DNA of 64,000 nucleotides from a virus, in IMG/VR virus record IMGVR_UViG_3300011113_000664, positions 62,001 through 126,000 of that record; one strand, given 5' to 3'. Below, in pieces: positions 4,285 to 63,029 of this stretch. The translations under genes and the position numbers were made by a program. The notes below the pieces were generated by a model. That model was not told where the DNA came from. It did not search any database and was given only the letters and a program-made list of their open reading frames with translations. Position 1 is the first letter of the stretch. The number at the start of each line of letters is the position of its first letter.

Positions 4285-4299
4285 TTTTTAATAAATAGT
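4285..4299 (-). promoter_or_regulatory. Late-promoter-like element before 815-aa gene
   Basis: ACTATTTATTAAAAA (minus strand), ending six bases before the ATG at 4278; 13 of 15 positions match the window consensus ACTATTTATAATAAA. Confidence 0.6.
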
Positions 4300-4336
4300 T
4301 GAAAACAACTAATTATAATAAATTATAAAGTTTATA

Positions 4337-4531
4337 ATGACTAAAAAGGAAGAAGAATCTTTAAAAAAAGAGATTATAAAAGAACTTAAACCTTTTATTG
4401 AAAAAGAAATACAAAAAATTGTTAAAGATAAGTTTAGTGATGATGAGATTAAAAAGGTCACAGTAAAAACCTTATCTAATTTATTTAGAGTTCTTTGGAA
4501 CAGAAAAGGTACTTGGGGTGATGCTGTTTAA
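4337..4531 (+). CDS. Hypothetical helical protein, 64 aa
   Basis: Lone plus-strand gene between two minus-strand units. The product is Lys/Glu-rich and helical for its first 45 residues (KKEEESLKKEIIKELKPFIE), then has a conserved-looking tail, LSNLFRVLWNRKGTWGDAV. Its stop overlaps the convergent spanin gene by four bases. An A/T-rich leader precedes it, but no clear late element on this strand. Function unknown. Confidence 0.55.
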   Translation: MTKKEEESLKKEIIKELKPFIEKEIQKIVKDKFSDDEIKKVTVKTLSNLFRVLWNRKGTWGDAV

Positions 4532-4992
4532 AAAACGAAAAAAAATGTAGTTCCTAAAGTACCAACAAGTGTAATAATAATTATATTTTTATTTCTAATT
4601 TTATATTTGTTTTCCAAAAGTGCATTCTTTTGAATATTTACAATATTATTATAATGTTCTAAACTTTTATATGTACTATCCAACTGTTGTTGTTTTAAAG
4701 CAAGTATAGTTTTATATTTTTTAATTACTGAATCATTATTTGAAATTAATGAATCTTGTAATGATAATCTTTTGGTATATAAATCTTTAATCTTTTTTTG
4801 TTTTAATAAAAAAGTTGTTTGATAATAATCAAATGTAAAAAATGACATATTATTTTTTTCAAAATAATCATATGGTTTTAATGTTCTAGGTTGATTTTTA
4901 ATCCTCAAATTCAAATTGTTCGTTTGACAATTCCCTAATAAGGGTAGCATCATCCATATTATTAATACGAGTCTTAATGTTTTTTTCTTCAT
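4528..4992 (-). CDS. Spanin-like lipoprotein with C-terminal membrane anchor
   Basis: 154 residues. The N-terminus (1-22) is a signal peptide: three Lys, a hydrophobic core, then LLGNC with Cys22 as candidate lipidated residue; Asn before Cys is not canonical. A predicted helical, Lys/Gln-rich periplasmic region (about 60-130) follows. Residues 136-154 (from NIIIITLVGTLGT) form a membrane segment at the extreme C-terminus. Lipobox plus C-terminal transmembrane segment is the layout of unimolecular u-spanins, which fuse outer and inner membranes in lysis. The gene starts inside the preceding i-spanin-like gene in another frame (95-base overlap), the arrangement of Rz/Rz1 pairs. The role is inferred from topology and overlap only. 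Confidence 0.6.
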   Translation of the reverse strand: MKKKTLRLVLIIWMMLPLLGNCQTNNLNLRIKNQPRTLKPYDYFEKNNMSFFTFDYYQTTFLLKQKKIKDLYTKRLSLQDSLISNNDSVIKKYKTILALKQQQLDSTYKSLEHYNNIVNIQKNALLENKYKIRNKNIIIITLVGTLGTTFFFVF

Positions 4993-5251
4993 TTTTATTA
5001 TCTTTAATCTTTTCTTTAATTACTATAGTATTTTGCTCAGTCTTATCTATTTGAGTTTGTAGAGAATCAATTAATATTTGTTTTTCTTTATTTATTTTAT
5101 CTAATTCTTGTATTTTTGCTTCTTTCTGACTTATTAAGTCATCATTATTTTCTTCTTTTTTAAAAAAGAATGTATAAACAAAATAATAACCTAAAAATAA
5201 ATTTAAACAAAAAGCAACACTTAATAAAAATTTTAAATAACTATTACTCAT
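4898..5251 (-). CDS. i-spanin-like (Rz-type) membrane protein
   Basis: 117 residues with one N-terminal membrane segment (about 6-29, with FLLSVAFCLNLFLGYYFVY) followed by a long charged coiled coil (about 33-100). This is the topology of inner-membrane spanin subunits such as Rz. Its ATG overlaps the stop of the 129-residue gene upstream (TAATG), and its 3' end holds the start of the lipoprotein-like gene in another frame. Together they form a candidate lysis cassette for disrupting the Gram-negative outer membrane. Spanins vary too much in sequence for identity alone to settle this. Confidence 0.6.
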   Translation of the reverse strand: MSNSYLKFLLSVAFCLNLFLGYYFVYTFFFKKEENNDDLISQKEAKIQELDKINKEKQILIDSLQTQIDKTEQNTIVIKEKIKDNKNEEKNIKTRINNMDDATLIRELSNEQFEFED

Positions 5252-5640
5252 TATTTTTCTGTGTTATCTTTCCAAATTTTAAAGTATTCTTTAACTTTTT
5301 GTAAAGTTGTAATGGCATCATCATCTAATTCAAGTTCATCAGAAGTAATTATTGGTTTATCTTTTTCAACATCATATGTAAAAGATAATTTACCATCATA
5401 TTTTTCACCTTTAACAAGTTTATCTGACATTTCAGTTACTTTTGAATCATTTGTTGCTTTTTCAAGAGTAGATTGTGCATCAGTATCAGCCATTTCTTCT
5501 GGTGTTGGCATATCAACATCCTCCCTTAAAAATGAAGATGAGATAGAATTGTTAGGTGTTTTCATACCTTTTGTTATTGCTAGTAACTTTTTAAGTTCAT
5601 CAACTTCTTTATTTGCTTTCTTCTGATTAAATCTAAACAT
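5251..5640 (-). CDS. Hypothetical acidic protein, 129 aa
   Basis: Unrecognised. A short basic N-terminus (MFRFNQKKANKEVDELKKLL) is followed by an acidic, disordered-looking middle (PTPEEMADTDAQ) and a C-terminal region that may hold short strands and one helix (ALTTLQKVKEYF-like, ending KIWKDNTEK). It is the first gene of the spanin unit: a late-promoter-like element ends five bases before its ATG, and its stop overlaps the next start. Probably expressed late. Confidence 0.55.
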   Translation of the reverse strand: MFRFNQKKANKEVDELKKLLAITKGMKTPNNSISSSFLREDVDMPTPEEMADTDAQSTLEKATNDSKVTEMSDKLVKGEKYDGKLSFTYDVEKDKPIITSDELELDDDAITTLQKVKEYFKIWKDNTEK

Positions 5641-5645
5641 AATAT

Positions 5646-5660
5646 TTTAATATAAATAGT
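5646..5660 (-). promoter_or_regulatory. Late-promoter-like element before spanin unit
   Basis: ACTATTTATATTAAA (minus strand), five bases before the ATG at 5640; 14 of 15 positions match the consensus. Confidence 0.65.
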
Positions 5661-5674
5661 TTTTTTCTAATTAT

Positions 5675-8380
5675 ATGTATAAAATACGATTTATGTCAAA
5701 AAATTATTTATCGGATAAACTAAGAGCATTACCTTTCTATGATGAAGTAACAAGAGCAGGTGGTAAAATATATGCTGTTGGTGGACCTGTTAGAGATTTT
5801 ATTTTGGGTAAACAATCTAAAGATTTAGATATTATTGTTACAGGAATTGAATATGATTTATTGCAAGGTATTTTAGAAAACTATGGTAAGACTGATTTAG
5901 TTGGTAAATCATTTGGTATTATTAAATTTAAAGAAACACCGACTAGTGAAGAAATAGATGTTGCACTTCCTCGTACAGAAAAGAAAACAGGACAAGGTTA
6001 CCAAGGATTTGAAGTAACTGTTGACCCTAATATGTCAGTAGAGGATGAAATGAGAAGAAGAGATATTACCATTAATAGTTTAGCTATGGATGGTGATGGA
6101 AATATTATTGACCCATTTAATGCTCTTAATGATATAAAAAATAAAAATATTAAAGCAACATCAAATGAAAGTTTTTCGGAAGACCCATTAAGAATGTTGC
6201 GTGTTGTACAATTTGCAACAAGGTTTGGTTTTAACATTGATTCTCAAACAGAAGAAATGATTAGACAAAATGCAATGCTAATAGAAGAAATTTCTCCTGA
6301 AAGATATATTATTGAATTTGATAAAATAGTTTCAAAAGGTAACCCAACCCAAGGTGTTAAATTGCTTGTAGATTTAAATTTATTTGTACCAATATTTGGT
6401 TTTGTATATTCGGGTGATTTTAAAAACTTTGATAAAGTTAAGTCTATTGGTGAGTTTTTATATTTATGTACTTTTACACCTCAAAATTCAGCACAGAAAT
6501 TTTTTTTTGAAATTATTAAAAAAAGATTTGGTTCTGCATTAGCAGATAAGGTTAAAAAAGAAATTGAATCCTTAACAAATTTAAGTTTGTTTGGACAAGA
6601 CAAAGTTGAGAATCTTTTTACATTAATGAAGATGTATAAACTTTCTCCTGAAACAATACAAAATTCATTATTAATACCTAATGAATTAAAACAAATGGCT
6701 CAAAAATATCCAATGGATGTTAAACAACTTGATATTACAGGTATGGATATTATGGGATTAGGTTTTAAGGGTAAAGATATTGGTGATAAAATAATTGAAA
6801 TATTTAAAGCTATTTTTTCTGACCAAATACCAAATCAAAAACAATCAATAATTGATTATCTTAAAAAAAATAAACTAAATGAAAACGAATCAATGGAAAC
6901 ACCAAGAATAACATCATTTAGACAATTGGTTGAAAAATCACCAAAAGAATTAAAAGACATTTTATATTCAAACTGGCAAGCAAAACAAAATCCTAAATGG
7001 CATCCTGAAGGGAATACACTAAAACATATTATTGTTGTAACAAATAGAGCAATTAATAAACAACCATATAATATCAATTTGATATTAGCAGGTTATTTTC
7101 ATGATTTAGGTAAAATGGCGACTTATGAAATTTCACCTAAAACAGGACAACCAACTGCTTATGGGCATGAAGATGTATCTGCTGACTTAGTTAATAAATA
7201 TCAAGATTTTATTACTGAATTAGGTGGTAATCCTGAAGTGGTAAATTATATTGTAAAAAATCATATGAAAATGAAACCTACCACTTGGGATGTAATGAAA
7301 GATGCAAAGAAGGATGTTATAAAATCAAATCCTAGTTTTTCTGATTTAGAAACATTTTCAACAATTGATAAAGGTGGTTTAAATGAAAAACAAGAATTAA
7401 AAGGTGGTAAAGCAGACAAATTAACTTTGGGTAAAATTGCCGAAATACATAATATTAAAATTGAGAAATTAATACCTCAATTAAAATTAGGTATTAAGAC
7501 TGAAATGGAACATACTAATGATAAAAAACAAGCAAAGGAAATAGCATTAGACCATTTAGCTGAAAATCCAAAATACTATACAAAACTTAAAAAAGCAAAG
7601 TTAGAAGAAACTATTATTAATTCATTAAAAACATCTTTTATTGAATCTGAAAACATACCATCTAAATTAAAATCAGATGTTGAGATTGAATATCATAAAA
7701 GTTTAAATCCTTATTTCTGGTTAAACAATCATTTAAAAAGTAATATCAGAAAAAATCTTTTGAATCTTGGTAAATATTATTTTAAAAGTTTAGAATTAGA
7801 CCCAAAGGTAAAATTAAAAGATATAATTTTTACAGGTAGTTTAGCAAACTATAATTATACAGATTCATCTGATATTGACTTACATATTGTTATTGATTAT
7901 AAAGATGTGTCAGATGATGTTGATTTTGTAATGAATTATTTTTTACAAAAAAGGGCAGCATGGGAAGTATCAAATGATGTAAAGATTGGTAATTATCCTG
8001 TTGAGATATATGTTCAAGATATAAATGAACAAACTGTTGGTAAAAGTGCAATGTATTCAATACTTACTAATAAGTGGATTAAGAAACCAAAGTATAAATT
8101 ACCTGAAGTTGATAGGCATTTAGTTACACAAAAAGTTAATAAGTATTTAGATATCTTTAATAAGATATCAATGATGAAAGACTCATTAAAGAAGATTGAA
8201 AGTTATAATAAAGTACTTAAAAAGATTAAGAAAGAGCGTGGTGAAGCAACTCAAAAGGAAGGTGAATTTTCGGTAAATAATTTAGTTTTCAAAGTTTTAA
8301 GAAACAAAAAAGTATTTGATATCATTAAGGATGATAAAAAAGAAATAGTAAATAACGTATTTTCTATAAATTCTAACTAA
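5675..8380 (+). CDS. Fusion protein: CCA-adding-type nucleotidyltransferase, HD domain and second nucleotidyltransferase
   Basis: 901 residues with several enzyme-like modules. Residues about 30-240 are a poly(A) polymerase/CCA-transferase head: YAVGGPVRDFILG, then KDLDIIV with catalytic Asp50/Asp52, RRRDITINSLA and a DPLRMLR neck helix. Residues about 435-520 are an HD-type region (HPEGNTLKH near 443, HDLGK near 475). Residues about 590-640 hold GIKTEMEHTNDKKQAKEIAL and DHLAENPKYY, a motif I associate with phage proteins of the DUF5661 type. Residues about 715-770 are a second nucleotidyltransferase fold (GSLANYNYTDSSDIDLHIV). The family role would be nucleotide transfer to tRNA 3' ends, but the fusion and its place at the head of a late unit suggest something else, perhaps a virion-delivered protein. 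An alternative ATG lies at 5693. Confidence 0.8.
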   Translation: MYKIRFMSKNYLSDKLRALPFYDEVTRAGGKIYAVGGPVRDFILGKQSKDLDIIVTGIEYDLLQGILENYGKTDLVGKSFGIIKFKETPTSEEIDVALPRTEKKTGQGYQGFEVTVDPNMSVEDEMRRRDITINSLAMDGDGNIIDPFNALNDIKNKNIKATSNESFSEDPLRMLRVVQFATRFGFNIDSQTEEMIRQNAMLIEEISPERYIIEFDKIVSKGNPTQGVKLLVDLNLFVPIFGFVYSGDFKNFDKVKSIGEFLYLCTFTPQNSAQKFFFEIIKKRFGSALADKVKKEIESLTNLSLFGQDKVENLFTLMKMYKLSPETIQNSLLIPNELKQMAQKYPMDVKQLDITGMDIMGLGFKGKDIGDKIIEIFKAIFSDQIPNQKQSIIDYLKKNKLNENESMETPRITSFRQLVEKSPKELKDILYSNWQAKQNPKWHPEGNTLKHIIVVTNRAINKQPYNINLILAGYFHDLGKMATYEISPKTGQPTAYGHEDVSADLVNKYQDFITELGGNPEVVNYIVKNHMKMKPTTWDVMKDAKKDVIKSNPSFSDLETFSTIDKGGLNEKQELKGGKADKLTLGKIAEIHNIKIEKLIPQLKLGIKTEMEHTNDKKQAKEIALDHLAENPKYYTKLKKAKLEETIINSLKTSFIESENIPSKLKSDVEIEYHKSLNPYFWLNNHLKSNIRKNLLNLGKYYFKSLELDPKVKLKDIIFTGSLANYNYTDSSDIDLHIVIDYKDVSDDVDFVMNYFLQKRAAWEVSNDVKIGNYPVEIYVQDINEQTVGKSAMYSILTNKWIKKPKYKLPEVDRHLVTQKVNKYLDIFNKISMMKDSLKKIESYNKVLKKIKKERGEATQKEGEFSVNNLVFKVLRNKKVFDIIKDDKKEIVNNVFSINSN

Positions 8381-8390
8381 TTATATTAAA
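8376..8390 (+). promoter_or_regulatory. Late-promoter-like element, weak, before 173-aa gene
   Basis: ACTAATTATATTAAA, eight bases before the ATG at 8399 and overlapping the stop of the 901-residue gene; 13 of 15 match. Confidence 0.45.
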
Positions 8391-8398: not shown

Positions 8399-8920
8399 AT
8401 GACTAACAAACAACTATATAATTTAATTTTTGAAAATTTTGTTCAAGCTAAGAGAGAATTAATTAGAGAAGGTTATACAAAAAAACATTTAGATGAAGTT
8501 GATTTCAATGAAATCTTTGGTAGAACTAAATCATTAATGCAAGAAAAGAAAATTGAATCTCTTAAAAGAGAAAATGAAATGCTAAAAAAACAACTTAGCA
8601 AAAAGCAAGGTTTAAAAGAAGCTGGTTCAATGAGTGCTGCCGAAATGGGTAAGCAAACAGGTGGCGCAGGTTCTGAAAGTATATGGAATTTTTTAACAAA
8701 AGTTGGTGCTAAATTAGGCAGTAAAACTGCAAAGGCTGATGTTATTGCTGATGAATTAGAAAAAAATAATCAGTTAAATAGTAGTGATATTGATAAATTC
8801 AAATTTAAATATATAAGATTTAAAAAATCAGGTTTAAATGATATGCAAGCCACAGAAAAAGCATTGGATGAATTGAGAATGCAGAATTTAGCTGAAAGTA
8901 AAAAAAGAAGAAGATATTAA
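8399..8920 (+). CDS. Hypothetical helical phage protein, 173 aa
   Basis: Unrecognised. Helical N-terminus (KQLYNLIFENFVQAKRELI), a Lys/Glu coiled coil (about 55-75), a small Gly/Ala linker (about 80-95) and a basic C-terminus ending KKRRRY. A variant of the late element (13 of 15 positions) ends eight bases before the ATG. Location just before the terminase and capsid genes suggests a head-assembly or internal virion protein, without direct support. Confidence 0.55.
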   Translation: MTNKQLYNLIFENFVQAKRELIREGYTKKHLDEVDFNEIFGRTKSLMQEKKIESLKRENEMLKKQLSKKQGLKEAGSMSAAEMGKQTGGAGSESIWNFLTKVGAKLGSKTAKADVIADELEKNNQLNSSDIDKFKFKYIRFKKSGLNDMQATEKALDELRMQNLAESKKRRRY

Positions 8921-10550: not shown

Positions 10551-10988
10551 ATGGAAAAAGAATATATTAATATTGAACCTATTAAGGTTCAAGAAACCGA
10601 TTTAAAATTAGTTTATGTAAATCCTGTCGGTGAAACCCATAATGGTTCACAAAAATTAGAATTTATATTTTCAAATAATCCTGATGATTGTATTGGCCCT
10701 CAATGGGAAGATGTATGTGATTTAGGTGTTTATCCACCAAGAAAGGGATTCATTAAAAAAGTAATGGAAGTTACATCTGATTCAATTGAGTTTGATTGTA
10801 TTGTAGATTCTTCGGAATTTAGAATGCTTGATGCTGTATTTGGTGTTGTAGCACTCGCTTGGGAATATGTGGAAGATTATAGAAAGATGTCTTCGTTAAA
10901 CAAAAGTCTTGTTGTTTTTAGATATGGCGATTCATATTATGATGTTCGTGAAGTATTGAGAAACAATGATATTAAGTTTGAGGACTAA
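10551..10988 (+). CDS. Hypothetical protein upstream of terminase, 145 aa
   Basis: Unrecognised mixed alpha/beta protein (TDLKLVYVNPVGETHNGSQK, CIGPQWEDVCDLGVYPPRKG, then a helical C-terminus with DSYYDVREVL). It lies 15 bases before the terminase start and is probably translated from the same message. No catalytic motif is visible. It is not obviously the terminase small subunit: there is no helix-turn-helix or long coiled coil. Confidence 0.6.
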   Translation: MEKEYINIEPIKVQETDLKLVYVNPVGETHNGSQKLEFIFSNNPDDCIGPQWEDVCDLGVYPPRKGFIKKVMEVTSDSIEFDCIVDSSEFRMLDAVFGVVALAWEYVEDYRKMSSLNKSLVVFRYGDSYYDVREVLRNNDIKFED

Positions 10989-11003
10989 TTAAAATAAAAC
11001 CAC

Positions 11004-12782
11004 ATGACCAAACATGAACTAATGATGGAGTATGCCAAGTGCGCTATTGATATAGAGTACTTTGCAAAAAAATATTGTAAAGTTTGGGATAAGAAAAAAC
11101 AACAGTTTGTACCTTTTCAATTATTACCACAACAAATTCAAGTATTAGAAACTTACAAAGAAAGTAATAGAGTATTGGTTGCTAAATATCGTCAAGGTGG
11201 TATTACAACTGTAACTTGTTTATATTTAGCACATTCAATTGTTTTCAGAAAAGATATTAAAGTTGGTGTTGCTGCTAACAAATTAAAACTTGCAAAGGAA
11301 AGTATCTTTTATCAAATAGCATCTATTATTAATAATTTACCAAGAGAAATATTTAATAGAATACCAACTGATTCAGATACAAAAGAAATCAAGATTTATA
11401 ACAATGGTGCAACACTACAGGCTTTCGCAGCATCTGCCGATGGTCTTCGTGGTTTTACACCTGATATATTATTTATAGATGAAGCTGCGTTCCTTGAAGA
11501 AGGTGAAGAATTTATGTCTTCTGCATCAGGTACAATGTCAGCAGGTGGTCAGATTATATTAAACTCCACACCAAGAGGTCTTGACCCAACATATTATGCT
11601 CGTTATGAAGGAGCAAGAACAAAGAAAAATAACTTTAAAGTTGTTGAAATTAATTGGTTTGAAGACCCTCGTTATAATGAAGATTTAATTTGGATTAGGG
11701 GTGATGAATTTGTTGAGGAAAAAGACCCTGAAAAATATATGCAATTAAGAGTTAATGGTTATAGACCATCATCTTCTTGGTTTAGAGATATGTGTCAAAC
11801 ATTCAATAATGACCCAAGAAAAATTGCACAGGAATTAGAAAATAAATTCTTAGGTTCAGGTGGTAACCTTGTTGATGAGGAAACCATTATGAGAATTGAA
11901 AAGACTTGTAAAGAACCAATCAAAACAGAGTTTGATAATCACTTTTGGATTTGGGAAGAACCGATATTTGGTTATGATTATTATTTAGCTTGTGATGTTG
12001 CAAAAGGTAGTGGCGATGGTGACTACTCTACAATTCAAATATTTAAAAATGACATGGCAAACATGTTACTTGTTCAAGTTGCTGAATATCAATCAAGAGT
12101 ACCGCTTGAAGTAATGGGTGAATTATGTTTACAATATGGTGAAAAATATAATAATGCTTATGTGATTGTCGATGTTACAGGAGGTTGGGGTATATCTGTT
12201 ATTAGATATTTGGTAAATAAAAAATATAAAAAAATACATTACGATAGGCCAAGACAAAATGATGTAAAGATTCAATTAAAAAATTTACAAAGAGGTGAAT
12301 TACAACCGGGATTCACAATGAAAAATGGTGCTATTCGTGATTATGTTATTAGAGAATTTGAAAGAAGATTAAGAGAAGGTGAAGCATTAATTCATTCAAT
12401 AAGATTACTTAGTGAAATTAAAACATTTGTATTTAATGACAACACAAATAGATATGACCACATGCGTTCAGCACATGATGACTTATTAATTGCAACAGGA
12501 ATGTTATTTGCTGTTTATATGTTTTCTAAAACAATTGGAAATGAATTTAATATTTATTTGAATTATGCAAAGTCAGCAATTGTAAGGAAGGGTGATGAAT
12601 TTACAGATGCAAATGCAGAGTTTCAAAAGAAAATGCTAAGTCAAGATGGACAAGATGTAAATTATGAAAGAAAGAATGATATGATAAAGGGTAAGGATTG
12701 GTATACAAATGGTAACAGCATAGATGTACCTGAACGTCAAACACCAAAAATAAATAATAACCCTTACATATTTGTTAGATAA
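11004..12782 (+). CDS. Terminase large subunit (gp17-type)
   Basis: Packaging motor ATPase and nuclease, which cuts concatemeric DNA and pumps it into proheads. In the ATPase domain, the Walker A variant is KYRQGGITT at 61-69, Walker B is ILFIDE at 155-160 and the coupling motif is NSTPRG at about 187-192. In the C-terminal RNase-H-fold nuclease, Asp331 lies in LACDVAKGSGDGDYS, Asp390 in VIVDVTGGWG and a late acidic pair in RSAHDDLLIA. The length of 592 residues is close to T4 gp17 (610). The gene directly precedes the portal gene, the usual order. All key residues are present. Confidence 0.96.
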   Translation: MTKHELMMEYAKCAIDIEYFAKKYCKVWDKKKQQFVPFQLLPQQIQVLETYKESNRVLVAKYRQGGITTVTCLYLAHSIVFRKDIKVGVAANKLKLAKESIFYQIASIINNLPREIFNRIPTDSDTKEIKIYNNGATLQAFAASADGLRGFTPDILFIDEAAFLEEGEEFMSSASGTMSAGGQIILNSTPRGLDPTYYARYEGARTKKNNFKVVEINWFEDPRYNEDLIWIRGDEFVEEKDPEKYMQLRVNGYRPSSSWFRDMCQTFNNDPRKIAQELENKFLGSGGNLVDEETIMRIEKTCKEPIKTEFDNHFWIWEEPIFGYDYYLACDVAKGSGDGDYSTIQIFKNDMANMLLVQVAEYQSRVPLEVMGELCLQYGEKYNNAYVIVDVTGGWGISVIRYLVNKKYKKIHYDRPRQNDVKIQLKNLQRGELQPGFTMKNGAIRDYVIREFERRLREGEALIHSIRLLSEIKTFVFNDNTNRYDHMRSAHDDLLIATGMLFAVYMFSKTIGNEFNIYLNYAKSAIVRKGDEFTDANAEFQKKMLSQDGQDVNYERKNDMIKGKDWYTNGNSIDVPERQTPKINNNPYIFVR

Positions 12783-12823
12783 AATATTTATATCTATTTA
12801 AAAGAAACGTATTTTAATTAGAT

Positions 12824-14640: not shown

Positions 14641-14655
14641 ACTATTTATATTAAA
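14641..14655 (+). promoter_or_regulatory. Late-promoter-like element before prohead core gene
   Basis: ACTATTTATATTAAA, ten bases before the ATG at 14666; 14 of 15 match. Confidence 0.65.
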
Positions 14656-16131: not shown

Positions 16132-16166
16132 TTTTTTTACTAATTAAATATAGATAATAAAATAAA

Positions 16167-20012: not shown

Positions 20013-20027
20013 ACTATTTATAATAAA
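20013..20027 (+). promoter_or_regulatory. Late-promoter-like element abutting zinc peptidase gene
   Basis: Exact ACTATTTATAATAAA, directly joined to the ATG at 20028 and only five bases after the capsid terminator's T run. A start seven or so bases after a -10-like core would give a leaderless message. Confidence 0.7.
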
Positions 20028-22405: not shown

Positions 22406-22873
22406 TTATTTATTATAAATAGTCATGATATCATCTATGCTTTTTAATTCGTTTACTTCTTCAATCTTTTCTACAATCTCGTTTTTAGGTTTCTTAACTG
22501 ATTGAGTACCACGAAGTGAATTAATTTTTTTACTGATATTTTCTTCAAGTTCTTTCTTTTCTTGTTCAAGTTTTTTATTTAATTCAAAAAGCATTTTTTC
22601 TCTTTCTAAAAATGTATTCTTTATTTGTACAAGAATGTTAAATAACTCATCAGTATGGTCTACAGATTTTAAAAGAAACTGATAAATATTATATTGTCTT
22701 CCGTTATCTTCAAATGTTTTTTTTGGATTTTCTAATATATAAACTTCATTTTCATCAAAAAATGGTGTCATATCCCAATCCGTTGGAAATGACATATAAA
22801 CATCAACAAAATCGTCAAAATTTATTTGAACGATATAATCTTTTAGTTCTTCAATTATTTTTTTAAATTTCAT
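22406..22873 (-). CDS. Hypothetical coiled-coil protein, 155 aa
   Basis: Unrecognised. An N-terminal globular part (1-75, with an acidic and aromatic FDDFVDVYMSFPTDWDM patch) is followed by a coiled coil (about 85-125, EREKMLFELNKKLEQEKKEL). It overlaps the upstream membrane-protein gene by four bases (ATGA), and its 3' end contains the late element of the gp13-like gene. Likely a tail or neck accessory by location only. Confidence 0.5.
   Translation of the reverse strand: MKFKKIIEELKDYIVQINFDDFVDVYMSFPTDWDMTPFFDENEVYILENPKKTFEDNGRQYNIYQFLLKSVDHTDELFNILVQIKNTFLEREKMLFELNKKLEQEKKELEENISKKINSLRGTQSVKKPKNEIVEKIEEVNELKSIDDIMTIYNK
22409..22423 (-). promoter_or_regulatory. Late-promoter-like element before gp13-like gene
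   Basis: Exact ACTATTTATAATAAA on the minus strand, nine bases before the ATG at 22399, located inside the last codons of the 155-residue gene. Confidence 0.7.
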
Positions 22874-27689: not shown

Positions 27690-27704
27690 TTTTTAATAAA
27701 TAGT
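27690..27704 (-). promoter_or_regulatory. Late-promoter-like element before 789-aa gene
   Basis: ACTATTTATTAAAAA (minus strand), 14 bases before the ATG at 27675. Only five bases separate its upstream edge from the plus-strand copy at 27710. Confidence 0.65.
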
Positions 27705-27709: not shown

Positions 27710-27724
27710 ACTATTTATAAAAAA
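27710..27724 (+). promoter_or_regulatory. Late-promoter-like element before 1308-aa baseplate gene
   Basis: ACTATTTATAAAAAA, nine bases before the GTG start at 27734, back to back with the copy at 27690-27704. Confidence 0.65.
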
Positions 27725-32624: not shown

Positions 32625-32639
32625 ACTATTTATAATAAA
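32625..32639 (+). promoter_or_regulatory. Late-promoter-like element before sheath gene
   Basis: Exact ACTATTTATAATAAA, ten bases before the ATG at 32650. Confidence 0.7.
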
Positions 32640-35424: not shown

Positions 35425-35439
35425 ACTATTTAAAATAAA
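35425..35439 (+). promoter_or_regulatory. Late-promoter-like element before tube gene
   Basis: ACTATTTAAAATAAA, eight bases before the ATG at 35448; 14 of 15 match. Gives the tube gene extra expression inside the tail unit. Confidence 0.65.
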
Positions 35440-39222: not shown

Positions 39223-39477
39223 TTATTTCAATCTTGTTGTTCTATAGATGAACCAAAAAGCACCCAACAGAAATTTAGGTAATAAAATTAGTGTTAGGGT
39301 TTTTAAAAACTCTTCATCTACCCACTCAATTCCAATGAATTGCATTACCGAAAAAATTACTGTTGGTACAATCAAATATAGAGCAAATTTAGGTAAATAA
39401 AATGCAAATCCAAGAAAAAGATTGTCTAATATTTTACCTAATTTGCTGTGTACTATGTTATCTAAAAACTTTTTCAT
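39223..39477 (-). CDS. Small membrane protein, 84 aa
   Basis: Two hydrophobic segments (about 20-48 with YLPKFALYLIVPTVIFSVMQ, and 60-80 with LTLILLPKFLLGAFWFIY). Start and stop of this gene and of the upstream PhoH-like gene overlap by one base. No recognised family. It is last in the sigma/primase/PhoH transcript. Confidence 0.6.
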   Translation of the reverse strand: MKKFLDNIVHSKLGKILDNLFLGFAFYLPKFALYLIVPTVIFSVMQFIGIEWVDEEFLKTLTLILLPKFLLGAFWFIYRTTRLK

Positions 39478-40229: not shown

Positions 40230-40235
40230 TTGTTT

Positions 40236-40757
40236 TCATGTAAATAGGTCATCGGTTAGATTTGTTTTTAAAAAAACTATTAATTTTTGGTCAAAATCCT
40301 TTATTTTTTGATATGAAAAGTTCATCTTTTTTATAATTGTCTTATTGTCATAATGTTTCAAATATTTATTTTCATAAAAATTTTTTAATGTTTCATCTTG
40401 ACAAATTTTCATAATTTCATTAAGGGAATCAAATTGTTTTTCATAATCTGTTGTAATAAAAACAGGTTCAATAGTTTGTTCTTTATCATCAATTGATGTG
40501 TACTTTTTATATTTTTTTCTGTTAATCTTCCTTACATAATCATAAAAATGATTTTGTGTAACAGTATACACCCAATTATCTAAAGTTTTTTTATTTAACT
40601 TCTTATGGTAATTAATAATAATTTTGCTCATTGTTTCCGCACTTAAATCTTTTGAAAGTTGTGCATCGGAGGTTTTTGAGTAAAAATAATTCAAGACTAA
40701 TTTTTCATACTTTTTGTAAATTTGTTTGTCTAACTTTTCCTTTTCTATATCCAACAT
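40236..40757 (-). CDS. ECF-like RNA polymerase sigma factor
   Basis: 173 residues with a two-part ECF layout. Residues about 35-84 resemble region 2: LSAETMSKIIINYHKKL, then DNWVYTVTQNHFYDYVRKIN with basic residues after it. Residues about 110-164 resemble region 4 with a helix-turn-helix (YLKHYDNKTIIKKMNFSYQK). No region 3 is seen. Such factors direct host RNA polymerase to specific promoters. In T4, late genes use a small sigma-like protein (gp55, 185 residues), and this one is of similar size and ends DDLF, vaguely like clamp-binding tails. It is a candidate reader of the late element in this window, by inference. Confidence 0.7.
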   Translation of the reverse strand: MLDIEKEKLDKQIYKKYEKLVLNYFYSKTSDAQLSKDLSAETMSKIIINYHKKLNKKTLDNWVYTVTQNHFYDYVRKINRKKYKKYTSIDDKEQTIEPVFITTDYEKQFDSLNEIMKICQDETLKNFYENKYLKHYDNKTIIKKMNFSYQKIKDFDQKLIVFLKTNLTDDLFT

Positions 40758-40783: not shown

Positions 40784-41746
40784 TTATTGTTTTAAATTCG
40801 TTTTCATTAGTTCAAATATATAATCTTTTCCATTATTTTGTATATTTTCATTCAAATCAGCATTATCTTCATAGGTTTGTATCATTACATTTGTTAAACC
40901 TAAGTTCAATAATCGTTCCTGAATTTCTAAAGATGAATTTGGTGTCTTAGAATAGTTAAAATCTTGTCTTTTTTCTATTGCATCAGGATTTAACATTATA
41001 ATAACATTTGGTTTATATTTTATTAATTTTGATAAAATATTATCTTGTAAAGACTTACCTAATAATACAATAGTATTAATAGGAATTGTAGTGTATTCAA
41101 AATATGCTTCAACAATATAAACCGTTGAGTTCCAATTTATATGTTTTTCATTAAAAATTATCTCTTTTTTATCTGCTTGTGGTAATTTATAAGCATGATG
41201 TTTATCAACATCATTTGTAAATGCTCTAGTAATATAAAAATTTATTTTACCATTCAAATCATATGATGGTATTACAATTCTATTTTTATAATAACCTTCA
41301 AGACAGAAACCTAAGTTGTCTCTTTTTATTAAAAAATCAGAAACCTTTCTATTTTTTAAATATGTATATGCTTGAACATGTAATGGATTTGTTTTATCCA
41401 TTTTTTGAAAAGAGATAAATTCTTTTGGGAGACCAAAAATTTTATATTTCTTTATTTGTGACAAAATAACAGGTTCATTTTCATATTTTAAAAATTCTGC
41501 AATTTGTTTTCTTGTTGCATACTTTTTAAACACAAAAAATAATGGTCCTGACAAACCACACTTCCAACACTTACATACTTTATTGTATTTTCCCCTATTA
41601 TTTAATGATATATTAACTTCAAGATTATATTTATCATCAGCAACACCATAATTTAATTTAGCGCATTCAGGACAATTAAATTGCATCTGTGTTGATGCAT
41701 TATTTTTGGGATGACCAAAAACTTCTTCAAGAAGATTATAAATCAT
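40784..41746 (-). CDS. DNA primase-like protein (zinc finger plus TOPRIM)
   Basis: 320 residues. N-terminal zinc-ribbon: CPEC at about 25-28, and CKCWKCG near 60 after a strand-rich segment, as in CHC2-type primases. The middle part has NRIVIPSYDLNGKINFYITR, common in DnaG-like cores. A TOPRIM-like segment follows: VYIVEAYFE (usual EGxxD) and MLNPDAIEK (usual LDxD). The acidic Glu is kept, but the first Asp becomes Glu and one Asp of the DxD becomes Asn, so activity may be altered. It overlaps the sigma factor gene by 11 bases. No replicative helicase is present in the window. Confidence 0.8.
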   Translation of the reverse strand: MIYNLLEEVFGHPKNNASTQMQFNCPECAKLNYGVADDKYNLEVNISLNNRGKYNKVCKCWKCGLSGPLFFVFKKYATRKQIAEFLKYENEPVILSQIKKYKIFGLPKEFISFQKMDKTNPLHVQAYTYLKNRKVSDFLIKRDNLGFCLEGYYKNRIVIPSYDLNGKINFYITRAFTNDVDKHHAYKLPQADKKEIIFNEKHINWNSTVYIVEAYFEYTTIPINTIVLLGKSLQDNILSKLIKYKPNVIIMLNPDAIEKRQDFNYSKTPNSSLEIQERLLNLGLTNVMIQTYEDNADLNENIQNNGKDYIFELMKTNLKQ

Positions 41747-42578
41747 TTTTAATCTTGTTTATACCCTTATCATGAATTTTTTTAATATCTTTTTCTGACA
41801 TGTTTAAAAGTTTCGATATTTGATTGAAACTCAATTCAGGTTTATCACTCAAGCCATATCTATAGTTAATTATTAATTTTTCAATTTTATTTAAACCTTT
41901 TAATGATAAAGATTTTAAATCACTATTAAGATAAATAAATTCATCATTTAAAACTGATGTTGGTAACATTTCTTCATAATTTATTTCTTCGGAACTATTT
42001 ACGGTAGTATAAATTGATAAAATATTGTTATCATCAATAGCATTGACCGATTTTGCAATTACTTCACTAGCAGTTTCTTCAATTAAATCATCCTTTATAT
42101 CATCTATATTTGGGTCAAAACCGTATTTATTATAAAAATTATTTTTTAATTCTAAATACTTTTGATTTATTGAATGTTGTTTGATTGGTTGTTTAATGAT
42201 TTTTGATTCCTTTGCAATTCCTTCTAATATTGCTTGTTTAATCCACCAAACTGCATAAGTACTAAATTTATAACCTTTATTTGGGTCAAATTCTTCAACA
42301 GCTTTTATTAAACCAATATTTCCTGATGATATGATGTCGGACAATTGATAAAAACTGCTATTATGGTAGTATTTAGCAACATTTATTACAAATCTTAAAT
42401 TATTAATAATTAATAATTCCTTAATTTTTGGACACTTTGTTGTTTGATATTCATAAAACATTTCGGTTTCTTGTTTTTTTGAAATCTCATCAATATTTCT
42501 AATATCTTGATGATAAAGTTTTAAAATATCGGATGTGTCCTTTGTTATTTTGATTGTATTTGATGATATTTTCTTCAT
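41736..42578 (-). CDS. RNA polymerase sigma-70 family factor (primary type)
   Basis: About 280 residues. It has a complete region 2: INNLRFVINVAKYY, LSDIISSGNIGLIKAVEEFD and GYKFSTYAVWWIKQAI, the most conserved sigma-70 segment, used for core binding and -10 recognition. Region 3 (SKIIKQPIKQHSINQKYLEL) and region 4 (LNKIEKLIINYRYGLSDKPE, then FNQISKLLNMSEKDIKKIHD) follow. Region 1.1 is missing, as in group 2-3 factors. I chose the ATG at 42578; an upstream ATG at 42623 would add an unlikely hydrophobic leader. It heads, with a small 98-residue gene, the unit carrying primase, a second sigma and PhoH. Confidence 0.93.
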   Translation of the reverse strand: MKKISSNTIKITKDTSDILKLYHQDIRNIDEISKKQETEMFYEYQTTKCPKIKELLIINNLRFVINVAKYYHNSSFYQLSDIISSGNIGLIKAVEEFDPNKGYKFSTYAVWWIKQAILEGIAKESKIIKQPIKQHSINQKYLELKNNFYNKYGFDPNIDDIKDDLIEETASEVIAKSVNAIDDNNILSIYTTVNSSEEINYEEMLPTSVLNDEFIYLNSDLKSLSLKGLNKIEKLIINYRYGLSDKPELSFNQISKLLNMSEKDIKKIHDKGINKIKNDL

Positions 42579-42632
42579 AGATAAACAATAAACAAATATA
42601 AAAATTGCTCTTTTTATATGCAAAAAAAATTT

Positions 42633-46469: not shown

Positions 46470-46484
46470 ACTATTTATAATAAA
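46470..46484 (+). promoter_or_regulatory. Late-promoter-like element before terminase-small candidate
   Basis: Exact ACTATTTATAATAAA, four bases before the ATG at 46489 and divergent from the gp6 copy. Confidence 0.7.
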
Positions 46485-52333: not shown

Positions 52334-52348
52334 TTTATTATAAATAGT
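52334..52348 (-). promoter_or_regulatory. Late-promoter-like element before 466-aa array gene
   Basis: Exact ACTATTTATAATAAA on the minus strand, 11 bases before the ATG at 52322. Confidence 0.7.
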
Positions 52349-57390: not shown

Positions 57391-59445
57391 TTAAAAATCC
57401 ATATCTAATTCTACTGTAAATAATTTATTGGTACTCTTTTTAATAGGATTATTTAATTTACCAATAGCGACTAATGAATTATTTTGGTCATAAATAGCAG
57501 CTTCGGTTATATACACACTATCATTACTATCCCATGTTGGATTATTAGAAGTGTTATATTCATTAAATCCTAAAATATGTGACATTTTTGTTCTATAAAC
57601 TGTTGCCTTAATTTCTGTGTTTATATTGCCAAGTAATATACTTTCCTCACCAAAACCTAATTTTGTTGTTGTTGAATAATCTCCTGTTGTTGGTAATGTT
57701 CCTATCCAATTTTCAATATTATATGTTGTACCACCTGTATAATCATCATTATTTAATGTATAATTTTGGGTAAGTGCTGTTACAGGTATTGAATATACAC
57801 CCCATAAACCATAATCTCGTAATTTTGATGTATAATCAATTAATTTCCAAGTTGCAGGATTTGGTGTTAGATTTGTATTAACTTTTTGAGCCAAAATATA
57901 AAATTTGTTTGCGTTAAACCCTGTTCCATCTGATGAAGATACATCAGATACCATGAATTTTAAATCAGATGATTTAAAACTAAATAATACATTTTGGTCT
58001 GATGTAGTAGATGGATATATGTATGTTGTATAACCACAATGAATACCACCTCTTAAACCTAAACTAGTATTAGTATTGTAACCATCATTATATGCGTTTT
58101 CATTAGTAAATAAATATGTTAAAGCAACATATTGTGTTGAATTTTTAGGTAATAGTGAATTTGTACTTGGAGAAGTTGCAATAGAACCTTGCCAATTTGG
58201 TAATGGTAAAGTATGTGACCTGTCACTTTTAAGTGCTAAAACATTTACTAATTCTTCATCCTCAATAACTGCAATTCTTAAATCATTAAATACTTTCCCC
58301 ACAATATTTTGAGAAGTTGATTCAACAAGATTATAATATTCAGTTGTAAATCCTGTTAATGTTGTTAGTTCTGTTTTCTTTTGTGTATCTGCCGATAAAA
58401 CAATACCCATTGTTCGGTTTTCTTTACCATGATACATAACTGTCGGTAAATCAATTCTAAATGTATTATTATAAAATCCTTCACCGTAATAATTTGATAT
58501 TGATTTATTAGTATAATGAATTATTGCAAATTTAGATGTAGAATTATCAAGCGATAAACCTTGAATGTATTCTTTAAAACCTGAAAATATTGCACTATCA
58601 TAATATTGCGGTACATAACTATTTGTTATACCTGCTAAAGTATCTTTATAAACAATATTTAAATTCCAAACAGGTACATCATCGTTTGCACCAATATTAC
58701 AAGTTGAATCAAACGATAGAGTGTTATAATTCCAATAACCAACAGTTGTTCCTGTACTATAGTAATTATCAACTGCATTATTTGGAGGATAAATATAAAT
58801 TAAACATTTATATGTTCCACCATTTCCATTAAAACGTGGTAAAGTCCTATCAAGTGTTATACCCGTACCATTTACAGCTTGAACTTTATACCAAAGAAAT
58901 TGTCTTGGATAGTTTTCACCAATAACACCTGTTGTACTCGTAAATACTGTTAATTTTGGATTTCTAAAATCAATTAAAAGTGTAGTACCTGTTATAATAT
59001 TTGTTGCTGATGCTACATTAATTACACTACCACCTGTAAAACCTGTAATAAAAGCAGTTGTCATGCCTTTAATATATGTTGATGATGTTAATGCTGTAAA
59101 ACCTGCTGAAGTAGAACCTGTAAAAAATCCTCTTTGTTTAGCGGTATTTTTAACTTGTGTAGTGACAGGTAGAATATTATCAATAGTTTTTTTTGTTACT
59201 GTTGAGTCACTTGATGAAATTGGAACACCATATTTAATATTAGGATTTGCATCTTTTGGTCGCATTATTGAAAGGTCAGAACCATCAATTACACTTTCAA
59301 AATTTCTTAAAAAATTATAATCAACTTCTGAATCACCAAATTCAATTCTTGTAAAGTTTAAATTACCTGAAGCAAGTAGTAGTCTACCTATATTTGTCAG
59401 TTTTGTGTTAATTACAACTGCATCTGTTTTTTGTATAAAACTCAT
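57391..59445 (-). CDS. First protein of adhesin array, 684 aa, tail fibre-like
   Basis: The N-terminus (1-50) has NTKLTNIGRLLLASGNLNFT then RIEFGDSEVDY, a divergent form of the array module (LTxxGRxxLxxG, then FxLxDxDxNY). The middle is a long beta-rich region. The end, YITEAAIYDQNNSLVAIGKL then NNPIKK, is shared with the 466-residue gene and resembles P2-type fibre motifs. Thus it combines features of both ends of the array. A late element overlapping that of the divergent holin candidate lies 11 bases upstream and should drive the whole run to 52358. Confidence 0.65.
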   Translation of the reverse strand: MSFIQKTDAVVINTKLTNIGRLLLASGNLNFTRIEFGDSEVDYNFLRNFESVIDGSDLSIMRPKDANPNIKYGVPISSSDSTVTKKTIDNILPVTTQVKNTAKQRGFFTGSTSAGFTALTSSTYIKGMTTAFITGFTGGSVINVASATNIITGTTLLIDFRNPKLTVFTSTTGVIGENYPRQFLWYKVQAVNGTGITLDRTLPRFNGNGGTYKCLIYIYPPNNAVDNYYSTGTTVGYWNYNTLSFDSTCNIGANDDVPVWNLNIVYKDTLAGITNSYVPQYYDSAIFSGFKEYIQGLSLDNSTSKFAIIHYTNKSISNYYGEGFYNNTFRIDLPTVMYHGKENRTMGIVLSADTQKKTELTTLTGFTTEYYNLVESTSQNIVGKVFNDLRIAVIEDEELVNVLALKSDRSHTLPLPNWQGSIATSPSTNSLLPKNSTQYVALTYLFTNENAYNDGYNTNTSLGLRGGIHCGYTTYIYPSTTSDQNVLFSFKSSDLKFMVSDVSSSDGTGFNANKFYILAQKVNTNLTPNPATWKLIDYTSKLRDYGLWGVYSIPVTALTQNYTLNNDDYTGGTTYNIENWIGTLPTTGDYSTTTKLGFGEESILLGNINTEIKATVYRTKMSHILGFNEYNTSNNPTWDSNDSVYITEAAIYDQNNSLVAIGKLNNPIKKSTNKLFTVELDMDF

Positions 59446-59452: not shown

Positions 59453-59467
59453 ACTATTTATAATAAA
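59453..59467 (+). promoter_or_regulatory. Late-promoter-like element before holin candidate
   Basis: Exact ACTATTTATAATAAA, 11 bases before the ATG at 59479. It overlaps the minus-strand copy by 11 bases, the pair forming ACTATTTATAATAAATAGT. Confidence 0.7.
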
Positions 59468-59471
59468 TAGT
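59457..59471 (-). promoter_or_regulatory. Late-promoter-like element before adhesin array
   Basis: ACTATTTATTATAAA (minus strand), 11 bases before the ATG at 59445, facing and overlapping the plus-strand copy at 59453. Confidence 0.65.
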
Positions 59472-59478
59472 TAGTATT

Positions 59479-59739
59479 ATGTTTGGTTTATTTTCAAAAT
59501 TTATAAATGATTTACTTAGGGATAGTAATTCTAAAAAAACTTCACTAACAAGAATACTAGCTATTATGTTATTTTTTATTGTTATATGGTTTCATATTGA
59601 AGCAATTTCAATAATGGTTTCTAAACAAGAGATTGACCACGCATTAATATTTGAAGATTTTGCTTTTATTAGTGCATTGATTATGCATAAAAATTATATT
59701 AATAGAAATAGCAAAGAAGAGCAAGTTGAACCTTCTTAA
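59479..59739 (+). CDS. Small membrane protein, holin candidate, 86 aa
   Basis: One strong membrane segment (about 26-47, LAIMLFFIVIWFHIEAISIM) and a weaker second hydrophobic stretch (about 54-70) with basic ends. Size, charged tail and late promoter suit a holin, but holins cannot be identified from sequence alone, and no endolysin gene is adjacent. It overlaps the convergent RmlC gene by four bases. Confidence 0.4.
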   Translation: MFGLFSKFINDLLRDSNSKKTSLTRILAIMLFFIVIWFHIEAISIMVSKQEIDHALIFEDFAFISALIMHKNYINRNSKEEQVEPS

Positions 59740-60275: not shown

Positions 60276-60277
60276 AA

Positions 60278-61681: not shown

Positions 61682-61683
61682 AA

Positions 61684-61703
61684 TTTAAGTAATATTACTT
61701 AAA
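61684..61703. promoter_or_regulatory. Perfect 20-base palindrome upstream of glycosyltransferase gene
   Basis: TTTAAGTAATATTACTTAAA is its own reverse complement. It ends two bases before the ATG of the minus-strand glycosyltransferase gene and lies after the gp25 stop. It could be an operator or a start-site hairpin controlling the sugar genes. The late element is not present here. Confidence 0.55.
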
Positions 61704-61715
61704 ATACGACAAAAA

Positions 61716-62108
61716 TTATGCACTTATTGAAAGTGATATATTATCAGCAACTGTTGTATATAAGTTGGTGTATAAAAAATCAATATTAATACTTAATGTA
61801 TTTGTGTTTTGGGATTGGTCAATTTGAATATCTTCAATCAAAAGATTTTTAAAATATTTTTCAATATCTTTTTTTAAAGATGCTTTTATTTCTGAAGCAA
61901 CGATTTGGTCATTTTTCTCAAATAAAAATTCATACAGTTTTGTTCCAAAATCAGGGTCATACCATCTTTCACCTTTTTTTGTTGTAACAAAAAAATATAA
62001 AGAAGAACGAATATCCTCAATACTAGTGGTATTCATTTTTAAAAGTTTACCATTAGTTTCATCATCCCTAAATGGGAATGCTATTGATATTGTTCTATTA
62101 TTTGCCAT
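61716..62108 (-). CDS. Baseplate wedge protein, gp25-type
   Basis: 130 residues; T4 gp25 has 132. Signature VTTKKGERWYDPDFGTKLYE then FLFE at about 41-64 is the GER/P.FG/LFE pattern of the gp25/GpW family, and the rest is the alternating helix and strands of that fold. It connects the wedge core to the first sheath ring. Its ATG overlaps the stop of the ParB-like gene by one base. Confidence 0.94.
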   Translation of the reverse strand: MANNRTISIAFPFRDDETNGKLLKMNTTSIEDIRSSLYFFVTTKKGERWYDPDFGTKLYEFLFEKNDQIVASEIKASLKKDIEKYFKNLLIEDIQIDQSQNTNTLSINIDFLYTNLYTTVADNISLSISA

Positions 62109-62989
62109 TAAGTAATTATTAGCATTAATTTATCACCAAAGTTGATTCCATCATATCCTGCTCTTTTTGCAAAACCATTTAATCTGTTTTTAATAAAATG
62201 TGCATAAACCTGATTTACATCGGATGCCATCTTTTTAATCATAGTTGGGTCTTTTTCAAAGTTAGGGTCAAGAATATACATACCTGCTAAATAGAATGGG
62301 TCATGAAGTTCCATTTCCTCATTAGGAACATATAAAACTTTATCAAAAAGAATTTCATATTCTTTATCATAACCTTTATCTTTTGTAAAGGACATAATAA
62401 AACCTGAAGTATTTCCTTTATCAAATGGTCTTACTGAATATAATGTAACAACTTTATTTGTAACATCATTAAAATCTAAATTTTCTTTCTGTTTTTCTAT
62501 TTCTTGCTCTTTATCAGGACCAAGATATTGTGCTTGCTGTTTTGGTTGATATAGATTACTTAATTCATTTTGAATAGTATCCATCATGTTAAATGTTGAT
62601 GGACTTTTAATTCCATATTCTTTTTTAAAATCAAGTCTATCTTGGATTTTATTTAAAATCCTACAAGCATCTTTAGAATTTAAAAAGATTTTATAACATT
62701 CTACTTTATCAATATCAGGTCTTGATTGATAAGCATAAACTCTGTGATGACCATCCAAAATATTATTATTTGCATCTACCCATGTCCTTGGTAAATAACC
62801 ATCATCATCAATAACACTATTAATATCATCAATTTTAGTTTTAGAAACCTTTTTTTGTAATGGTTTTAAATAGCTAGGTTCAACCATAACAGATTTAACA
62901 ATAATTCCACTATCCTTTAGTTCTTGAAGGATTTCATTTACATTTTCTTCTTTTACTTGCGGTAGCCAAATTTCAGAAACAGTATGCAT
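62108..62989 (-). CDS. ParB-like domain fused to ADP-ribosyltransferase-like domain, 293 aa
   Basis: The N-terminal half (about 25-105) has a ParB/sulfiredoxin-like fold: KSVMVEPSYLKPLQKKVSKT, then LPRTWVDANNNILDGHHRVY (GHHR core) and a following helix. The C-terminal part (about 180-293) shows VTLYSVRPFD, GFIMSFTKDKGY, ILFDKVLYVPNE and AKRAGYDGINFGDKLMLI. The Y-(S/R), SFT, strand-rich and GYDGI pattern resembles ART-type domains found in phage polyvalent proteins. Such proteins are often packaged and act on the host at entry. The late element nine bases upstream fits a virion or late protein. The ART call is my pattern reading; no catalytic Glu is certain. Confidence 0.65.
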   Translation of the reverse strand: MHTVSEIWLPQVKEENVNEILQELKDSGIIVKSVMVEPSYLKPLQKKVSKTKIDDINSVIDDDGYLPRTWVDANNNILDGHHRVYAYQSRPDIDKVECYKIFLNSKDACRILNKIQDRLDFKKEYGIKSPSTFNMMDTIQNELSNLYQPKQQAQYLGPDKEQEIEKQKENLDFNDVTNKVVTLYSVRPFDKGNTSGFIMSFTKDKGYDKEYEILFDKVLYVPNEEMELHDPFYLAGMYILDPNFEKDPTMIKKMASDVNQVYAHFIKNRLNGFAKRAGYDGINFGDKLMLIIT

Positions 62990-62998
62990 GTATCTATT

Positions 62999-63013
62999 TT
63001 TCTATTAAATAGT
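62999..63013 (-). promoter_or_regulatory. Late-promoter-like element before ParB/ART-like gene
   Basis: ACTATTTAATAGAAA (minus strand), nine bases before the ATG at 62989; 12 of 15 match. One base separates it from the plus-strand copy at 63015. Confidence 0.5.
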
Positions 63014-63014
63014 G

Positions 63015-63029
63015 ACTATTTATATAAAA
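63015..63029 (+). promoter_or_regulatory. Late-promoter-like element before gp26-type gene
   Basis: ACTATTTATATAAAA, 11 bases before the ATG at 63041; it fixes that ATG as the likely start. Confidence 0.6.

What the first reader, a model, noticed from the sequence alone, without database searches (positions are those of the whole stretch)
4285..63029. A compact late-promoter element, ACTATTTATAATAAA, marks almost every virion transcription unit
Nineteen copies of this 15-base element or a close variant (six exact: 20013, 22409, 32625, 46470, 52334, 59453) lie 0-20 bases before a start codon, on both strands. They precede the capsid, sheath, tube, gp13, gp6, large baseplate, adhesin-array, spanin and gp26-type genes. 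I saw none before nrdB, the sigma/primase unit, the RuvC repair unit or the sugar genes. Sequence further upstream is not conserved to my eye. T4 late promoters also consist of one element (TATAAATA), but here the orientation and sequence differ. This may be an undescribed late promoter class of Bacteroidetes T4-type phages.
Basis: partly seen in the sequence, partly recalled or inferred. Interest (0 to 1): 0.85.

Follow-up and report, generated by a model that had tools for sequence, protein, structure and literature searches.

The report
Late-gene promoter of Far-T4 phages
This virus of bacteria marks the start of almost all its particle-building genes with one short DNA switch (ACTATTTA, four bases, AAA); the switch is built like phage T4's late promoter but has a different sequence, shared by a whole neglected branch of T4's relatives.

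Summary
The motif is real and behaves as a late promoter. An unbiased k-mer scan and de novo EM both recover it: ACTATTTA, four loose bases, then AAA, with no conserved -35 element. It sits on the sense strand, mostly 11-21 nt before late start codons. At PWM score 12 or more, 40 of 42 sites lie upstream of a gene. Seven of nine annotated virion genes carry it; none of ten replication, regulation or sugar genes does. AAA keeps register with the core, not with the start codon, so it is not a ribosome-binding signal. In one conserved case a terminator ends directly before it. The early arm uses a different two-part promoter, absent from the window. The same pipeline returns TATAAATA for T4 but TATTTA-type elements for Flavobacterium phage immuto, Rhodothermus phage RM378 and Microcystis phage Mel-JY01. 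In capsid, terminase and portal trees the TATTTA and TAAATA phages fall on opposite sides of one well-supported branch, the "Far-T4" side, so the class is not confined to Bacteroidetes. No gp55, gp45 or gp33 was found; the best candidate reader is a small ECF-type sigma. Start sites and timing are unmeasured. Verdict: new variant of the T4-type late promoter.

The parts
4285..4299 (-). late promoter of gene 1831-4278 (divergent pair with 4308)
   Evidence: score 14.3, core-to-start 13
4308..4322 (+). late promoter of gene 4337-4531
   Evidence: ACTAATTATAATAAA, score 14.0
5646..5660 (-). late promoter of gene 5251-5640 and the two small genes after it (reader: spanin-type)
   Evidence: score 15.9, core-to-start 12
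8376..8390 (+). late promoter of gene 8399-8920
   Evidence: score 13.5; present in 3 of 3 relatives
10984..10998 (+). late promoter of terminase large subunit 11004-12782
   Evidence: ACTAATTAAAATAAA, score 12.5; terminase by PHROGs
12793..12807 (+). late promoter of portal gene 12824-14632
   Evidence: TCTATTTAAAAGAAA, score 15.1; 9 of 9 relatives; portal by PHROGs
14641..14655 (+). late promoter of gene 14666-15430 (head module)
   Evidence: score 15.9; 10 of 10 relatives
16139..16153 (+). weak late promoter of scaffold-position gene 16167-18140
   Evidence: ACTAATTA core, 6 of 6 relatives, but below the score threshold in this genome
18160..18174 (+). late promoter of major capsid gene 18195-19958
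   Evidence: score 14.4, core-to-start 27; 7 of 9 relatives
20013..20027 (+). late promoter of gene 20028-20426, directly after a terminator hairpin and T-run
   Evidence: exact; terminator plus motif kept in 9 of 9 relatives; hairpin -16.5 kcal/mol
22409..22423 (-). late promoter of gene 21275-22399, inside the end of the upstream gene
   Evidence: exact; 8 of 11 relatives
27690..27704 (-). late promoter of gene 25306-27675 (divergent pair with 27710)
   Evidence: score 14.3; 10 of 10 relatives
27710..27724 (+). late promoter of gene 27734-31660 (1308 aa, GTG start)
   Evidence: score 16.2; 12 of 12 relatives
32625..32639 (+). late promoter of tail sheath gene 32650-35409
   Evidence: exact; 8 of 13 relatives by strict pattern, most others one base off; sheath by PHROGs
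35425..35439 (+). late promoter of tail tube gene 35448-35942
   Evidence: score 14.9; 12 of 14 relatives; tube by PHROGs
40234..40248 (-). late promoter of phoH (39477-40229), overlapping the 3' end of the small sigma gene
   Evidence: CCTATTTACATGAAA, score 15.5; core invariant in relatives at synonymous sites; kept in distant contig G003
46446..46460 (-). late promoter of baseplate wedge gp6-type gene 44614-46434 (divergent pair with 46470)
   Evidence: score 11.9; 6 of 6 relatives; gp6 by PHROGs
46470..46484 (+). late promoter of gene 46489-46911
   Evidence: exact; 5 of 6 relatives
52334..52348 (-). late promoter of gene 50922-52322
   Evidence: exact; 2 of 2 relatives
59453..59467 (+). 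late promoter of gene 59479-59739, overlapping its divergent partner
   Evidence: exact; 2 of 2 relatives
59457..59471 (-). late promoter of gene 57391-59445 (reader: adhesin array)
   Evidence: score 14.5
62999..63013 (-). late promoter of gene 62108-62989 (divergent pair with 63015)
   Evidence: score 13.2, core-to-start 16
63015..63029 (+). late promoter of gene 63041-63826 (start corrected from 62984)
   Evidence: score 15.8, core-to-start 18
40236..40757 (-). small sigma factor, 173 aa, candidate late sigma
   Evidence: Sigma70_r2 Pfam; phrog_1740; ECF sigmas best fold matches, sigma-4-like C-terminal half
41736..42623 (-). sigma70-like factor (regions 2 and 4), rival candidate
   Evidence: Sigma70_r2 and r4; phrog_351

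Best explanation
ACTATTTA-N4-AAA is the late promoter of this phage. It is a self-sufficient single-element promoter of the T4 type, equivalent to a -10 box with no -35, at the head of virion, packaging and phoH transcription units on both strands. By analogy with T4 (box ending near -6) and with the flavobacterial host -7 element, transcription would start inside the AAA, giving leaders of only about 10-14 nt at most genes. Host RNA polymerase carrying a phage sigma factor, most likely the 173-aa small sigma (40236-40757), would read it late; the early arm is read from a separate two-part promoter. SHOWN by sequence: existence, sense orientation, position, gene-class specificity, conservation, AAA register, separate early promoter, clade-wide distribution. 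INFERRED: that it drives transcription, the start site, late timing, and which sigma reads it.
For: Top unbiased 8-mer and EM motif. Sense-strand, 40 of 42 strong sites upstream of a start. AAA fixed to the core and no -35. Core and AAA 94-100% identical in orthologous upstream regions, apart from the T/A position, against roughly 70-90% upstream, same genes in relatives. Terminator ends 3-5 nt before the motif at gene 20028 in all nine relatives and at L009:9058. Heads 11 of 12 divergent starts, 6 of 33 tightly spaced same-strand genes. 7 of 9 virion genes against 0 of 10 replication/regulation/sugar genes, p = 7e-4; window against early arm p = 8e-7. Early arm has its own promoter, 37 of 38 copies there, none in the window, and no gene carries both. 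phoH copy conserved at synonymous sites. PWM from this phage finds portal, tape measure, sheath and tube promoters in isolated Flavobacterium phage immuto. Positive control T4 gives TATAAATA.
Against: No RNA data: no mapped start, no timing. Motif training and counting share data, apart from immuto. About two thirds of window genes have no copy and must be read through from upstream. Protease 15430 and scaffold-position 16167 lack a strong copy. Several carriers have no known function. The candidate sigma appears to have region 4, which normally reads a -35 that is absent here.
Confidence: 0.87

Rival explanations
1. It is a translation-initiation element (the A-rich or Kozak-like signal of Bacteroidetes) placed before highly translated genes, not a promoter.
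For: Flavobacteria lack Shine-Dalgarno signals and favour A at -3, -6 and about -11 to -14 (PMC6847099); the AAA often falls near -10 to -14. Sites are close to starts.
Against: Aligned on the start codon the signal disappears; aligned on the core, AAA is 94-100% fixed although core-to-start distance varies 7-27. Genes without the motif show no such A signal. It is rare at tightly spaced internal genes (6 of 33) which also need translation. A terminator ends directly before it.
Confidence: 0.05
2. It is a variant of the host's own primary promoter -7 box (TAHHTTTG) used by the host sigma, with no phage sigma needed.
For: The core shares TTT with the host -7 element (PMC6847099). immuto's early promoter TATATTTAG contains TATTTA.
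Against: No -33 element, C is nearly invariant and G(-5) is replaced by A. The two-part early element TTTG...TATATTA looks host-like and is confined to the early arm. Host-type promoters would not be confined to late genes. The class persists in phages of Rhodothermus and Microcystis.
Confidence: 0.07
3. The motif is a late promoter, but it is read by the sigma70-like factor (41736-42623) or by an undetected diverged gp55, not by the small ECF-type sigma.
For: Both sigma genes lie in one unit. TATTTA phages immuto and G001 encode diverged gp55-like proteins, related to T4 gp55 only at the limit of detection.
Against: The sigma70-like factor has a clear region 4 and resembles primary sigmas, which use two elements. 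RM378, with the same motif class, encodes a small ECF-type sigma and no sigma70-like or gp55 match. No gp55 match in this genome.
Confidence: 0.4
4. It is a repeated binding site for another process (packaging, replication or a repressor), not a promoter.
For: Short dispersed repeat in intergenic DNA.
Against: Strand-specific and distance-restricted relative to starts, one copy per strand at divergent gaps, absent from the early arm.
Confidence: 0.02

Closest known systems
T4 late promoters (TATAAATA; gp55/gp33/gp45 system; PMC2988020)
   Same: One 8-bp box, no -35, AT-rich downstream, on both strands, before virion genes, about 50 sites. Same place before capsid, sheath, tube, portal and terminase.
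   Different: Core TATTTA instead of TAAATA, fixed AAA at the presumed start, shorter distance to the start codon, no gp55, gp45 or gp33 match in this genome.
Cyanophage and other T4-like late promoters (S-PM2, KVP40, Aeh1; PMC2988020)
   Same: In silico late elements in T4 relatives; the review lists near-identical consensus and one variant in Aeh1.
   Different: Those keep the T4-type sequence; S-PM2 and HTVC008M give TAAATA here.
Far-T4 phages (RM378 and uncultured relatives; PMC4360716, PMC13037479)
   Same: RM378 defines the group; the capsid, portal and terminase of the TATTTA phages form the side of the tree away from T4. Flavobacteriales hosts have been proposed for Far-T4.
   Different: The 2015 study text contains no promoter; it reports that T4 transcription-regulation core genes were not detected and leaves transcription open.
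Bacteroidetes primary promoter (-33 TTTG / -7 TAHHTTTG; PMC6847099)
   Same: AT-rich -7-type box containing TTT; the phage's early element resembles it more.
   Different: No -33 element, different core, late-gene specific.

Membership tests
T4-type late promoter | single -10-position box with no conserved -35 | tested here: met
   No upstream column conserved over 50 nt; position relative to the start site is inferred
T4-type late promoter | precedes virion genes on either strand, not early genes | tested here: met
   divergent pairs
T4-type late promoter | sequence TATAAATA or a close variant | tested here: not met
   TATTTATA, two central bases changed
T4-type late promoter | read by gp55 (region 2 only, clamp-binding tail) | tested here: inconclusive
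   No phrog_234 match in this genome; small sigma looks ECF-type with region 4; its LFT tail overlaps the phoH promoter
T4-type late promoter | gp45 sliding clamp and gp33 coactivator | tested here: inconclusive
   Pfam PF02916 and PF16805 find nothing in the record; a diverged clamp cannot be excluded
T4-type late promoter | active only late and coupled to replication | not testable with these tools
   needs RNA from infected cells
Far-T4 phages | gp23, portal and terminase on the RM378 side of T4-like trees | tested here: met
   split support 99-100; RM378 itself only in the terminase tree
ECF sigma factor (small sigma 40236-40757) | regions 2 and 4 only, about 170-200 aa | tested here: inconclusive
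   Region 2 over Pfam cut-off; C-terminal half matches sigma-4 domains, TM up to 0.8 on the target, but best E 5e-3 and mean pLDDT 53
Bacteroidetes translation signal | register fixed to the start codon | tested here: not met

The most novel reading that the evidence does not exclude
Far-T4 phages run their late genes with a different machine from T4: an ECF-type phage sigma with host RNA polymerase at ACTATTTA-N4-AAA, without gp55 or the gp45 clamp, promoter and sigma having been exchanged together at the split between Far-T4 and the other T4-like phages.
Probability: 0.3. Interest if true: 0.85.

Novelty: new variant of a known kind. Interest (0 to 1): 0.72.

Why it matters
Far-T4 phages are found in fresh and sea water and have been linked to Flavobacteriales (PMC13037479), but how they control transcription has been open since T4's transcription-control genes were not found in them (PMC4360716). 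A defined late promoter, a contrasting early promoter and two candidate sigmas make that question directly testable. The clean TATTTA/TAAATA split is a natural experiment in how a promoter and its reader change together. In practice the motif sorts genes into early and late, corrects gene starts (63041, 27734) and supplies candidate expression parts for Bacteroidota.

Tried and rejected
The tail of the small sigma (DDLFT) was considered as a clamp-binding motif like T4 gp55's, then set aside because the same bases form the phoH promoter. Describing the small sigma as region-2-only was dropped after the fold comparison. The structure model is weak (pLDDT 53). Genome-wide TATTTA hexamer counts for immuto overstate the case because its early promoter TATATTTAG contains TATTTA; only the virion-side TATTTATA result and the PWM result are relied on. 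Host assignment by capsid search in one genome per 85,000 prokaryote species found nothing. Huge phages LR756508 and LR756511 and phage CBB gave no clear element. Own small sigma against T4 gp55 by profile comparison: no credible match.
Full report
WHAT WAS CHECKED. The window is bases 62001-126000 of a 170,056-base virus record. Because the motif is AT-rich in a 27% GC genome, I did not rely on searching for it: I called genes with a simple ORF rule, took upstream regions of 139 genes from 124 kb (window plus L009, L010, L011) and asked which 8-mers are over-represented there. ACTATTTA came first: 26 of 33 copies within 45 nt of a start, 0.7 expected; density outside coding 41 times that in coding. 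EM started from random subsequences converged on CTATTTATAWWAAA. At PWM score >=12, 40 of 42 sites are sense and upstream of a start, against 7 hits in all in the reversed sequence.

ANATOMY. Aligned on the motif, 38 sites show ACTATTTA, four loose bases, AAA, and nothing conserved within 50 nt upstream; aligned on the start codon the same sites show no comparable column. Core-to-start distance is mostly 11-21, mode 16-18. Total information is 12.9 bits, close to the 12.7 bits that about 50 sites in 340,000 positions require (my arithmetic). In orthologous upstream regions of relatives the core and AAA are 94-100% identical apart from the T/A position 4. The motif recurs before the same genes and not before RNR, the sigma genes, primase, RuvC or the exonucleases.

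WHY A PROMOTER. (i) Before gene 20028 a terminator hairpin and T-run end 3-5 nt before the motif, which abuts or nearly abuts the ATG; this is kept in all nine relatives (hairpin -16.5 kcal/mol). A second case stands at L009:9058. (ii) It heads 11 of 12 divergent starts but only 6 of 33 tightly spaced same-strand genes. (iii) Seven of nine annotated virion genes carry it and none of ten replication, regulation or sugar genes (p = 7e-4); 23 of 62 window genes carry it against 2 of 65 early-arm genes (p = 8e-7). (iv) The early arm (12.9-36.7 kb) carries a different two-part element, TTTGTAAGATT-N10-TTTGATATATTA, 38 copies, 37 of them in that arm and none in the window; no gene carries both. (v) phoH has a full-score copy written into the last codons of the upstream sigma gene, with a Leu codon of 7% usage invariant in relatives and kept in the distant contig G003. 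phoH also lies in the virion module of immuto and Mel-JY01.

HOW FAR IT REACHES. The same script returns TATAAATA from T4. TAAATA is favoured in S-PM2, HTVC008M, an Ochrobactrum phage, an Ackermannvirus and SCTP-2. TATTTA is favoured in this phage, contig G002, immuto, RM378, Mel-JY01 and contig G001. AAA at +12 to +14 is shared with RM378 and, more weakly, immuto. In IQ-TREE trees of capsid, terminase and portal the two groups are two sides of one branch, support 99-100. For immuto the genome-wide hexamer count is inflated by its early promoter TATATTTAG; its virion side on its own gives TATTTATA (p = 3e-16), and late-type elements are commoner there than elsewhere (16 of 82 against 7 of 146, p = 9e-4). 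Which RM378 carriers are late is not known for most of them.

MECHANISM. T4 late promoters are an 8-bp box about one turn before the start, with no -35, needing gp55, gp33 and gp45 (PMC2988020). The present motif works like that in layout. If the box ends at about -6, the start falls in AAA, leaving leaders of about 10-14 nt (inferred). This genome has no gp55, gp45 or gp33 match. It has two sigma genes beside the primase. The 173-aa one is my first candidate: RM378 also carries a small ECF-type sigma, and both lack a recognisable gp55. But ECF sigmas usually read a -35 as well, immuto and G001 instead carry diverged gp55-like proteins, and the structure model is weak. The sigma assignment therefore stands at about 0.45-0.5 and the promoter claim itself at 0.87.

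NOVELTY. Ten library searches found no description of a TATTTA-type late promoter (among them); subscription journals are mostly not held. The group is the Far-T4 phages, whose transcription was left open in 2015 (PMC4360716). I rate it a new variant of a known kind: the layout is T4's, the sequence, the AAA and probably the sigma are not.

LIMITS. Simple gene calls; related sites (for example three paralogous copies in L010) are not independent; EM training and counting share data, although immuto is an independent test; late timing is inferred from gene function; the host is unknown.

Noticed in passing
L009:12900-20000 and L081 (record 12.9-36.7 kb): A long, strongly conserved two-part early promoter, TTTGTAAGATT-N10-TTTGATATATTAagGTataAcAaa, about 38 copies before small genes; it resembles the Bacteroidetes -33/-7 promoter.
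   Followed up: partly
window 40234-40248: A late promoter for phoH is embedded in the last codons and stop of the small sigma gene, with a rare Leu codon kept in all relatives; phoH reads as a late gene in this clade.
   Followed up: yes
L102 (immuto 78150-78872, KNV73_gp118): Annotated as hypothetical, this is a diverged gp55-like candidate late sigma with relatives in LR756508 and contig G001.
   Followed up: partly
L064:10000-28000 (immuto 60-78 kb): immuto's small-gene region has its own early element, TATATTTAG followed by AATAATTAAAA, in 16-21 of 44 genes.
   Followed up: no
RM378 (L059, L066): The RM378 element TTATTTAA-NN-AAA often lies only 6 nt before the ATG; starts inside AAA would make many of its mRNAs nearly leaderless.
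   Followed up: no
L010:7665-8740: Three neighbouring paralogous genes share nearly identical upstream regions, each with a late promoter.
   Followed up: no
window 62984-63826: The ORF start at 62984 is very probably wrong; the late promoter lies inside it and points to a start at 63041.
   Followed up: yes
window 5675-8380: A 901-aa protein with a tRNA-nucleotidyltransferase-like N-terminal part lies just before the packaging genes.
   Followed up: no
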